64,000 nt of DNA from contig JAJFHE010000033.1 in assembly GCA_021775755.1 (NCBI GenBank), positions 1 to 64,000 of the forward strand, written 5' to 3'. Below are positions 37,220 to 40,091 of the stretch, in pieces. A program made the position numbers and the translations under genes. Source of the stretch: Hyphomicrobiales bacterium (GTDB lineage Bacteria > Pseudomonadota > Alphaproteobacteria > Rhizobiales > JAJFHB01). Positions within the stretch are counted from its first letter, which is position 1; the number at the start of each line of letters is the position of its first letter. The notes beneath the pieces were generated by a model, which had not been told where the DNA came from, made no database searches, and worked only from the letters and a program-made list of their open reading frames with translations.

Positions 37220-38989
37220 ATGAAAATGACCACCGAGGAAGCCTTCGTCAAAGTCCTGCAAATGCACGGGATCGAGCATGCATTCGGGATTATCGGCTCG
37301 GCGATGATGCCGGTGTCGGATCTGTTCCCGAAAGCCGGCATCACTTTTTGGGATTGCGCGCATGAGACCAACGCCGCGCTGATCGCCGACGGCTTCACCC
37401 GCACCACCGGCAAGATGGCCATGGCCATCGCCCAGAACGGCCCGGGCATCACCGGCTTTGTGACACCGATCAAGACCGCATACTGGAACCACACGCCGAT
37501 GCTGCTGGTCACGCCGCAGGCGGCCAACAAGACCATCGGCCAGGGCGGCTTCCAGGAAGTCGAGCAGATGAACCTCTTCAAGGACATGGTCTGCTACCAG
37601 GAGGAACTGCGCGATGCGAGCCGCGTCGCCGAAGTTTTGAACCGCGTCATTCTGAAAGCCTGGCGCGGTTCTGCGCCGGCGCAGATGAATGTGCCGCGCG
37701 ACTTCTGGACCCAGGTCGTCGACATCGAATTGCCGCAGGTCGTACGTTTCGAGCGCCCGGCCGGCGGGCCGAACGCGGTCGCGGAAGCCGCAAGGCTCCT
37801 GTCCGAGGCAAAATTCCCGGTCATGCTGAACGGTGCCGGCGTCGTGCTTGGCGGTGCTATCGAAGCGTCCATGGCGCTTGCCGAACGGCTCACCGCGCCG
37901 GTCTGCTGCAACTACCAGCACAATGACGCGTTCCCCGGCAGCCATCCGCTGTCGTGCGGGCCACTCGGCTATAACGGCTCCAAGGCGGCCATGGAACTGA
38001 TCGCCAAAGCCGATGTTGTTCTCGCCCTTGGTACCCGGCTCAACCCGTTCTCGACGCTGCCCGGCTATGGCATCGACTACTGGCCGAAGGACGCCAAGAT
38101 CATTCAGGTCGATATCAACGCCGACCGTATCGGCCTCACCAAGAAGGTAGCCGTCGGCATCGAAGGCGACGCCAAACAGGTTGCCGAGGGCATCTTGGCG
38201 CGGCTGACGAAGTCGGCGGGCGATGCCGGCCGCTCCGACCGCGAGAACCTCGTTCACCAGACGAAATCCGCCTGGCGCCAGGAACTTACCTCCATGGATC
38301 ACGAGGACGATGATCCCGGCACCGACTGGAACGAACGCGCCCGCGACCGCGATGCCGACCGCATGAGCCCGCGCATGGCATGGCGCGCCATTCAGGACGG
38401 TCTGCCGAAGGATGCGATCATCTCGTCCGACATCGGCAATAACTGCGCCATCGGCAATGCCTATCCCTCGTTCGAAAAGGGACGCAAATATCTCGCCCCC
38501 GGGCTCTTCGGCCCCTGCGGCTACGGCTTCCCGTCGATCATCGGCGCCAAGATCGGCAACCCGGATGTGCCCGTTGTCGGCTTTGCCGGCGACGGCGCCT
38601 TCGGCATTTCGATGAACGAAATGAGCTCCATCGGCCGCGACGAATGGCCCGGCATCACCATGGTGATATTCCGCAACTACCAGTGGGGCGCGGAAAAGCG
38701 CAACACGACGCTGTGGTACCACGACAACTTCGTCGGCACCGAACTCGACCCGCACCTGAGCTATGCAAAGGTCGCCGAAGGCTGCGGCCTCAAAGGCGTA
38801 AGCGTCATGACCCAGAACGAGCTGACAGCGGCGCTCGAAGAAGCCTGCAAGGCCCAGGTCGACGGCGTCACCACCTTCATCGAGGTCATCCTCAACCAGG
38901 AACTCGGCGAACCCTTCCGCCGCGACGCCATGAAAACCCCGGTAGAAGTCGCCGGCATAGACCCGGCAGACATGCGCCCGCAGGGTTAG
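37220..38989 (+). CDS. xsc: Sulfoacetaldehyde acetyltransferase
   Basis: ThDP-enzyme with MKMTTEEAFVKVLQMHGIEHAFGIIGSAMMPVSDLFPKAGITFWDCAHE and QGGFQEVEQMNLFKDMVCYQEE, characteristic of Xsc. Confidence 0.95.
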   Translation: MKMTTEEAFVKVLQMHGIEHAFGIIGSAMMPVSDLFPKAGITFWDCAHETNAALIADGFTRTTGKMAMAIAQNGPGITGFVTPIKTAYWNHTPMLLVTPQAANKTIGQGGFQEVEQMNLFKDMVCYQEELRDASRVAEVLNRVILKAWRGSAPAQMNVPRDFWTQVVDIELPQVVRFERPAGGPNAVAEAARLLSEAKFPVMLNGAGVVLGGAIEASMALAERLTAPVCCNYQHNDAFPGSHPLSCGPLGYNGSKAAMELIAKADVVLALGTRLNPFSTLPGYGIDYWPKDAKIIQVDINADRIGLTKKVAVGIEGDAKQVAEGILARLTKSAGDAGRSDRENLVHQTKSAWRQELTSMDHEDDDPGTDWNERARDRDADRMSPRMAWRAIQDGLPKDAIISSDIGNNCAIGNAYPSFEKGRKYLAPGLFGPCGYGFPSIIGAKIGNPDVPVVGFAGDGAFGISMNEMSSIGRDEWPGITMVIFRNYQWGAEKRNTTLWYHDNFVGTELDPHLSYAKVAEGCGLKGVSVMTQNELTAALEEACKAQVDGVTTFIEVILNQELGEPFRRDAMKTPVEVAGIDPADMRPQG

Positions 38990-39106
38990 GCTTGAGGCGC
39001 AGACAGTTCACGCATCAACAATCGCCCGGGACCGCTGACGAGCGGCTCCCGGCGACAAATGCGCGAAACACCTCAAAAACCGCGTGTCGCTTTGCATTTT
39101 CACTAT

Positions 39107-39130
39107 GTTTGTGTATTTATTTACACAAAC
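39107..39130. promoter_or_regulatory. Inverted repeat 1 upstream of hicA
   Basis: GTTTGTGTA-TTTATT-TACACAAAC, perfect 9-bp arms. Confidence 0.75.
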
Positions 39131-39150
39131 TTCCTTGAGGTTTCTGCATA

Positions 39151-39174
39151 TATTGTGTATACACATACACAATA
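39151..39174. promoter_or_regulatory. Inverted repeat 2 upstream of hicA
   Basis: TATTGTGTA-TACACA-TACACAATA, perfect 9-bp arms, same 9-6-9 geometry as repeat 1. Confidence 0.75.
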
Positions 39175-39187
39175 ATAGGCGCAGGAA

Positions 39188-39382
39188 ATGCTGACCAGCA
39201 GTCGCGATATCATCAAACGCCTTAAAGCCGATGGCTGGGAACTGGTGCGCATCAGAGGTTCGCATCGCCAGTTCAAGCACACCACCCGTCCGGGCCGCGT
39301 AACGGTTCCACATCCGGCAAAAGATCTGCCCGAGGGCACGGTGAAATCAATTTACAAACAGGCTGGTTGGGTGACGGATTGA
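39188..39382 (+). CDS. hicA: HicA-family mRNA interferase toxin
   Basis: MLTSSRDIIKRLKADGWELVRIRGSHRQFKHTTRPGRVTVPHPAKDLPEGTVKSIYKQAGW. Confidence 0.95.
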   Translation: MLTSSRDIIKRLKADGWELVRIRGSHRQFKHTTRPGRVTVPHPAKDLPEGTVKSIYKQAGWVTD

Positions 39383-39424: not shown

Positions 39425-39805
39425 ATGCCTCACTACCCCGCGGTAATTCATAAGGAAGCCGCATCGCAATTCGGCGTTTCGTTCCCTGACTTTCCTGGCT
39501 GTATCGCCGCTGGCGAAACGCTTGAAGACGCTCACCGCAATGCGATCGAAGCCCTGCGCTTTCACGTTGAGGGATTGGAGGACGATGGCGAGGACCTGCC
39601 CTCACCTTCCGCCCTTGAAGAGATTGACGCCGATGGCGGCGCACTGGCGCTTGTACCGCTGCTTCTGCCGCAAGGCCGCGCCCGGCGTGTCAACATTTCC
39701 ATCGACGCACGCATTCTCGACGCCGTCGACACTGAAGCGAGCCGCCGCGGCCAGACCCGCTCCGCCTTCCTCGCCGAAGCCGCCGAGCGCGCGATTTCCG
39801 ACTGA
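39425..39805 (+). CDS. hicB: HicB-family antitoxin with C-terminal RHH-like DNA-binding region
   Basis: MPHYPAVIHKEAASQFGVSFPDFPGCIAAGETLEDAHRNAIEALRFHVEGLEDDGEDLP; C-terminal RVNISIDARILDAVDTEASRRGQTRSAFLAEAAERAI. Confidence 0.93.
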   Translation: MPHYPAVIHKEAASQFGVSFPDFPGCIAAGETLEDAHRNAIEALRFHVEGLEDDGEDLPSPSALEEIDADGGALALVPLLLPQGRARRVNISIDARILDAVDTEASRRGQTRSAFLAEAAERAISD

Positions 39806-40055
39806 GCTGTTAGAAGTGAGAGTGTGGATGGGGCGCGAGCCGCGCACTAACAGACATTTCACCGCCGCAACTTGACGAAGAGGCCCCGAACACAAAGTGT
39901 TCGGCAAGGGCGACAGCCCGCCGAGCTTCGCTCGCCCCATAGGAGGCGTGAGCGAAGCGAATTGCCGTGAGATAGAAAGTGGCGCCCCCAAGGGGAATCG
40001 CTCAAAAACACAATCAGCAGATTTCAGCCAATTTCGCCAATCCTACAGGGCTATT

Positions 40056-40091
40056 GTTACACAAACCGTTACACAAAATGTTACACAAAAT
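40056..40091. repeat. 12-bp tandem repeat, 3 units (GTTACACAAAMY)
   Basis: GTTACACAAACC GTTACACAAAAT GTTACACAAAAT. Confidence 0.85.

What the first reader, a model, noticed from the sequence alone, without database searches (positions are those of the whole stretch)
39107..39174. Twin 9-6-9 inverted repeats in front of hicAB
Two perfect inverted repeats of identical geometry, GTTTGTGTA-N6-TACACAAAC and TATTGTGTA-N6-TACACAATA, lie with centres 44 bp apart (about four helical turns) and end 13 bp before the hicA start. The shared core is TTGTGTA-N6-TACACAA. HicAB systems are autoregulated and this HicB has an RHH-like C-terminus, so these are strong candidates for a two-site cooperative operator.
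Basis: partly seen in the sequence, partly recalled or inferred. Interest (0 to 1): 0.6.

Follow-up and report, generated by a model that had tools for sequence, protein, structure and literature searches.

The report
Twin self-control switch before hicAB
Two matching mirror-image DNA signals in front of a bacterial toxin-antitoxin gene pair are almost certainly the landing sites through which the antitoxin shuts off its own promoter, and the same signals recur in front of related gene pairs across many bacteria.

Summary
Two perfect 9-6-9 inverted repeats lie at 39107-39130 and 39151-39174, centres 44 bp apart, the second ending 13 bp before hicA. Dinucleotide shuffles gave two such repeats in 0 of 4000 trials, and the exact core occurs nowhere else in the 5.47-Mb genome.

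The operator reading is well supported. [quoted passage not shown] Of 200 RHH-type hicAB promoters, 124 carry paired hexamers (TGTGTA or a variant) at a 10-12 bp pitch; shuffles gave 1.15. HTH-type HicB loci gave 0 of 29. Sixteen promoters have two pairs, 14 of them 41-46 bp apart.

Two refinements. Each 6-bp arm looks like a complete box, since it also occurs in everted and direct pairs at the same pitch. The second palindrome contains the likely -10 element; the -35 lies between the palindromes. A published gonococcal HicB footprint, CAAATACACATAAA just upstream of a -35, contains the box (PMC12421842).

HicB binding here and cooperativity are inferred, not shown. This is a new member of a known kind; the family-wide box grammar and its link to HicB's DNA-contact strand are the fresh part.

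The parts
39107..39130 (.). Operator O1: perfect inverted repeat GTTTGTGTA-N6-TACACAAAC; boxes TGTGTA 39110-39115 and TACACA 39122-39127
   Evidence: Read directly; second sites upstream of the proximal one at 41-46 bp: 15 observed, 0.7 expected
39135..39140 (+). Likely -35 element TTGAGG, between the two operators
   Evidence: TTGA lies 17-20 nt before the left box of the proximal operator in 46 of 84 N6 or N4 promoters; here it is at -19. The generic promoter scan found nothing over its threshold: 4/6 + 4/6
39151..39174 (.). Operator O2: perfect inverted repeat TATTGTGTA-N6-TACACAATA; boxes TGTGTA 39154-39159 and TACACA 39166-39171; the spacer itself also reads TACACA
   Evidence: Read directly; the distance from last box to ATG (16 nt) equals the median of N6-type relatives
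39158..39163 (+). Likely -10 element TATACA inside O2, 17 nt from the -35
   Evidence: Position inferred from the conserved TTGA spacing
39188..39382 (+). hicA, 64-aa toxin (PF07927)
   Evidence: Pfam E 7.2e-25; the only hicA found in this genome
39425..39805 (+). hicB, 126-aa antitoxin (PF15919) with C-terminal RHH domain, DNA-contact strand RRVNISID
   Evidence: Pfam E 7.4e-31; PDB sequence matches 6g1n/6g26 and 4p78/4p7d; AlphaFold2 pLDDT 91 and Foldseek to the same entries

Best explanation
The twin inverted repeats are the autoregulatory operator of this hicAB operon. The RHH domain of HicB binds 6-bp boxes (TGTGTA/TACACA). Two boxes 12 bp apart lie on about the same face of the helix and form one palindrome, so one palindrome could take two RHH dimers, that is one HicB tetramer. 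O2 lies over the -10 element and O1 lies just upstream of the -35, so bound HicB would keep RNA polymerase off the hicAB promoter. By analogy with studied HicAB systems, excess HicA would pull HicB off and relieve repression. Shown here: the sequence, its conservation, its pitch, its association with RHH-type HicB, and the conserved TTGA position. Inferred: binding, repression, tetramer stoichiometry, cooperativity and the effect of HicA.
For: Repeats confirmed and not chance. HicB is an RHH-type HicB, closest in structure to tetrameric BpsHicB and YpHicB3 (tetramers per the review PMC11594946). Strict convergent pairs in 72 of 144 hicA upstream regions against 0.34 in shuffles and 0 of 2913 control windows in the same loci. 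Hexamer pairs in 124 of 200 non-redundant loci against 1.15 in shuffles. HTH-type HicB loci 0 of 29. Same hexamers in everted or direct order at the same 4-6 bp spacing. Twin sites 41-46 bp apart: 15 against 0.7 expected. TTGA at a fixed distance before O2. The operator varies with the HicB strand: Ala before the conserved Asn goes with GCG-containing boxes, 24 of 26 against 19 of 110. Published: gonococcal RHH HicB protects CAAATACACATAAA from DNase I, 3 bp upstream of a putative -35 (PMC12421842); S. meliloti HicB shifts a hicAB promoter fragment (PMC6327479), and a hicA primer in that paper places TGTGTA just before hicA.
Against: No binding or expression data for this locus. The -35/-10 match is only 8 of 12 and the generic promoter scan did not report it. 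Most relatives show one detectable pair, not two. 76 of 200 RHH loci have no pair by the criterion, partly through variant boxes or misplaced starts. The strand/operator association rests on few independent changes: 2-3 supported independent pairs, mostly or all concordant, too few for significance. The HTH control is imperfect: only 1 of those 29 loci had a hicA recognised by my profile.
Confidence: 0.88

Rival explanations
1. Each palindrome is one site for one HicB dimer that reads both arms, rather than two boxes for two RHH dimers; the twin palindromes are then two dimer sites.
For: Convergent order is by far the commonest. In E. coli RelB one RHH dimer covers a 12-bp palindrome made of two hexads (PMC2812701).
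Against: The hexamers sit 10-12 bp apart centre to centre, wider than one RHH sheet usually covers (general knowledge), and they also occur in everted and direct order at the same pitch. The gonococcal footprint of 14 bp holds a single TACACA.
Confidence: 0.2
2. The repeats are operators of another regulator (for example an XRE or TetR-type protein) that controls hicAB or a neighbour.
For: A similar site, TTTTGTACAATTATACACAA, lies upstream of an XRE-type gene elsewhere in the genome (L003), so the shape is not exclusive to hicAB.
Against: The boxes follow RHH-type hicAB through several phyla and unrelated neighbourhoods, are absent elsewhere in the same loci, and vary with HicB's own DNA-contact strand.
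Confidence: 0.04
3. The repeats act in RNA, as hairpins (a terminator for xsc or a leader structure for hicA).
For: Perfect inverted repeats can fold as RNA, and xsc ends upstream on the same strand at 38989.
Against: No terminator-like site was found. If the -10 assignment holds, transcription starts near the end of O2, so a hicA transcript lacks both repeats. Everted and direct pairs in relatives cannot form these hairpins.
Confidence: 0.03
4. The repeats belong to the neighbouring prophage's recombination sites, whose arm-type repeats GTTACACAAA share the word TTACACAA.
For: Three GTTACACAAA units at 12-bp pitch lie at 40056-40091, inside the left end of a prophage, and recur at its right end.
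Against: The hicAB repeats lie outside the prophage, 0.8 kb before attL (attL at 39980-40000). GTTACACAAA arrays occur beside integrase genes or tRNAs in other genomes, in loci brought in without reference to hicAB, and hicAB palindromes occur without them.
Confidence: 0.02

Closest known systems
Yersinia pestis hicA3B3 operator BS1/BS2 (RHH-type HicB)
   Same: RHH HicB; two inverted repeats at the hicA promoter; the main one overlaps the -10 box (review PMC11594946).
   Different: Reported as 15-bp repeats there; here 24-bp perfect repeats with 18-bp box-to-box cores. That sequence was not fetched or compared.
Neisseria gonorrhoeae hicAB, DNase I footprint of HicB
   Same: RHH HicB; the protected 14 bp CAAATACACATAAA contains TACACA and lies just upstream of a putative -35, as O1 does here (PMC12421842).
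   Different: One short site was reported there; here two full palindromes, the second over the -10.
Sinorhizobium meliloti hicAB (SMc04441/SMc04269)
   Same: Same bacterial order by name; HicB and its isolated RHH domain bind the hicAB promoter (PMC6327479); TGTGTA lies just before hicA (primer in Table 3).
   Different: Binding sites there are listed as unknown; the S. fredii relative has an everted pair TACACA-N4-TGTGTA, not a twin palindrome.
Burkholderia pseudomallei HicAB (PDB 6g26, 6g1n)
   Same: Best solved-structure match of this HicB, about 39% identity; tetrameric RHH antitoxin binding a palindromic promoter site.
   Different: A single palindromic region was reported to be bound there; promoter sequence not fetched.
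E. coli RelB and relO
   Same: RHH antitoxin reading 6-bp repeats on one face of the helix (PMC2812701).
   Different: relO hexads are [A/T]TGT[A/C]A and abut; HicB boxes are TGTGTA-type with 4-6 bp between them. RelB is not a HicB homologue.

Membership tests
Class 4 (RHH-type) HicAB type II toxin-antitoxin operon | hicA gene directly before hicB, same strand | tested here: met
   hicA 39188-39382, hicB 39425-39805
Class 4 (RHH-type) HicAB type II toxin-antitoxin operon | HicA toxin domain | tested here: met
   PF07927, E 7.2e-25
Class 4 (RHH-type) HicAB type II toxin-antitoxin operon | HicB with partial RNase H N-terminus and RHH C-terminus | tested here: met
   PF15919 over residues 4-120; helices 95-107 and 112-125 after strand RRVNISID; Foldseek to 6g26, 6g1n, 4p7d
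Class 4 (RHH-type) HicAB type II toxin-antitoxin operon | Palindromic operator in the promoter region | tested here: met
   Two repeats conserved in kind across RHH loci
Class 4 (RHH-type) HicAB type II toxin-antitoxin operon | HicB binds the operator and represses the operon; HicA toxic, HicB neutralises it | not testable with these tools
   Needs bench work
HTH-type (class 3) HicAB with hicO operator | HicB C-terminal HTH domain | tested here: not met
   RHH, not HTH; TGTGTA-type pairs 0 of 29 upstream of HTH-type HicB genes
Twin-operator arrangement as in Y. pestis hicA3B3 | Two inverted repeats around the promoter, the proximal one over the -10 | tested here: inconclusive
   Two repeats present; -35/-10 placed by family-wide TTGA spacing, promoter not mapped and not reported by the generic scan
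Conditional cooperativity of toxin-antitoxin operons | Binding depends on the toxin:antitoxin ratio and on adjacent occupied sites | not testable with these tools
   Needs titration of HicA and HicB on O1, O2 and O1-O2

The most novel reading that the evidence does not exclude
RHH-type HicB antitoxins share one operator grammar across phyla: 6-bp boxes, each read by one RHH dimer, paired at a 10-12 bp pitch in any orientation, with the promoter -10 built into the proximal pair and an optional second pair about 44 bp upstream. The box sequence follows the DNA-contact strand (R-V/I-N with TGTGTA, K/R-A-N with GCG-containing boxes, R-V/I-S with TGCATA), so operators could be predicted from HicB sequence.
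Probability: 0.5. Interest if true: 0.55.

Novelty: new member of a known kind. Interest (0 to 1): 0.42.

Why it matters
Binding sites are known for few RHH-type HicB proteins; the 2024 review lists them as unknown for S. meliloti and S. pneumoniae (PMC11594946). A box that recurs in most RHH-type hicAB promoters gives testable operators for many untested systems, and its link to the antitoxin's DNA-contact strand gives a way to predict cross-talk between several HicAB copies in one cell.

Tried and rejected
Generic promoter/terminator scan: nothing over threshold; the promoter was placed by conservation instead. Close orthologues: the few same-family genomes searched had no hit, so no near-identical locus could be compared; relatives are 41-56% identical. 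Phylogenetically independent test of the strand/operator association: too few independent changes, so it is reported as an association only. HTH control: few of those loci had a hicA recognised by my profile. The paper on B. pseudomallei HicB-DNA binding is not in the library, nor was the original Y. pestis paper found; both were used only through the review. Considered and rejected: the GTTACACAAA repeats as a third HicB operator; they are paired at both prophage ends and occur beside integrase genes or tRNAs elsewhere, although HicB binding there is not excluded.

Full report
Observation. Both repeats are present exactly as described. The shared core TTGTGTA-N6-TACACAA occurs exactly twice in the window and exactly twice in the 5.47-Mb assembly, both copies here. 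Shuffling 38990-39187 with dinucleotides kept gave at least one 9-6-9 repeat in 4 of 4000 trials and two in none.

Setting. The upstream gene is xsc, sulfoacetaldehyde acetyltransferase, ending at 38989. hicA is 39188-39382 (PF07927) and hicB is 39425-39805 (PF15919). It is the only hicA found in the genome. A prophage begins at 39980, downstream of hicB; hicAB lies outside it.

The protein. The HicB profile matches the solved RHH-type HicB proteins of B. pseudomallei (6g1n, 6g26) and Y. pestis (4p78, 4p7d) by sequence. An AlphaFold2 model from a 15-sequence alignment (pLDDT 91, pTM 0.62) matches the same entries. The C-terminus has a strand, RRVNISID, followed by two helices, as in an RHH domain; a monomer model cannot show the paired strand.

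Conservation. Relatives 41-56% identical were collected from the order, class and phylum and from named genomes. In 144 hicA upstream regions the strict pattern TGYGYA-N2..8-TRCRCA occurred in 72, against a mean of 0.34 in shuffles and 0 of 2913 equal-sized windows elsewhere in the same loci; spacers were almost all 6, 4 or 5. In a larger non-redundant set of 200 loci, pairs of TRYRYA boxes with at least two G+C each and spacers of 4-6 occurred in 124, against 1.15 in shuffles. Carriers include records named as Alpha- and Gammaproteobacteria, Acidobacteria and Terriglobia, Binatia and Desulfobacterales. Upstream of 29 HTH-type HicB genes from the same order there was none; few of those had a hicA my profile could recognise, so this control is partial.

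Box, not palindrome, as the unit. The same hexamers also occur as everted pairs (TACACA-N4/5-TGTGTA) and direct pairs, at the same 4-6 bp spacing. An RHH dimer is itself two-fold symmetric (general knowledge), so orientation freedom with fixed pitch is what is expected if each hexamer takes one dimer and two dimers sit side by side. HicB of Y. pestis and B. pseudomallei is a tetramer with two RHH units (review), which would fit one pair. This is inference.

Twin arrangement. Sixteen of the 200 promoters have two separate pairs; their centre-to-centre distances are 43, 43, 44, 43, 43, 46, 45, 43, 41, 31, 46, 44, 42, 45, 27 and 45. Anchored on strict proximal sites and allowing two mismatches, 15 second sites lie 41-46 bp upstream, against 0.7 expected. 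The 44 bp of the window is therefore typical of twin promoters in this family, though most promoters show one detectable pair.

Promoter logic. Aligned on the left box of the proximal operator, TTGA lies 17-20 nt upstream in 22 of 47 N6 and 24 of 37 N4 promoters. In the window TTGAGG is at 39135-39140, at -19, which puts the -10 at 39158-39163 (TATACA), inside O2. O1 then lies just upstream of the -35. Bound HicB at O2 would cover the -10. The match to consensus is weak and the generic scan did not report it, so the promoter needs mapping.

Link to the DNA-contact strand. In 136 loci with core pairs, Ala before the conserved Asn went with GCG-containing boxes in 24 of 26 cases, against 19 of 110 otherwise (Fisher p about 6e-13). 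Five HicB proteins with Ser in place of the Asn have TGCATA-type boxes or close variants. On trees built without the strand there are only 2-3 well-supported independent changes; the operator nearly always changed the same way. That is too few for a significant phylogenetic test, so it is a lead that favours HicB as the binder.

Published anchors. Gonococcal RHH HicB protects CAAATACACATAAA, 3 bp upstream of a putative -35 (PMC12421842); it contains TACACA. S. meliloti HicB and its RHH domain shift a hicAB promoter fragment (PMC6327479), and a hicA primer in that paper reads GTGTGTATTGTCGTATCAGATG, placing TGTGTA just before hicA. In the review, Y. pestis HicB3 uses two inverted repeats, the main one over the -10 (PMC11594946). 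A text search for papers holding both TGTGTAT and HicB found only the S. meliloti paper and one unrelated; the library holds open-licence papers only.

Verdict. An ordinary but well-supported autoregulatory operator of a known kind of system. The broader box grammar and the strand association are the parts a specialist might find new.

Noticed in passing
window 39980-40000 and 40056-40091; right end outside the window at contig C27 about 84403-84554: Left end of a prophage of about 44.6 kb. A 21-bp direct repeat TGGCGCCCCCAAGGGGAATCG marks attL at 39980 and lies in the 3' end of a tRNA-Glu(CTC) gene at the right end; triple GTTACACAAA repeats at 12-bp pitch, probably arm-type integrase sites, flank both ends, with an integrase-like ORF at the right end.
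   Followed up: partly
window 40056-40091: The phage repeats contain TACACA three times at exactly 12-bp pitch, the same word and pitch as the hicAB operator boxes. Probably coincidence, but HicB binding there is not excluded.
   Followed up: partly
L015, L016, L018, L020, L028, L096, L137 and similar loci: In 22 of 37 N4-type promoters the proximal operator ends within 3 nt of the hicA start codon, so with the -10 inside it the hicA mRNA would be leaderless or nearly so. In the window's type there is room for a short leader.
   Followed up: no
L003 (contig C47:13763-13782): A near-match TTTTGTACAATTATACACAA lies just upstream of an XRE-type gene; probably that gene's own operator.
   Followed up: no
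window 39925-39958: Imperfect 14-nt inverted repeat with a 6-nt loop between hicB and attL; possibly a terminator, though the scan did not report one.
   Followed up: no
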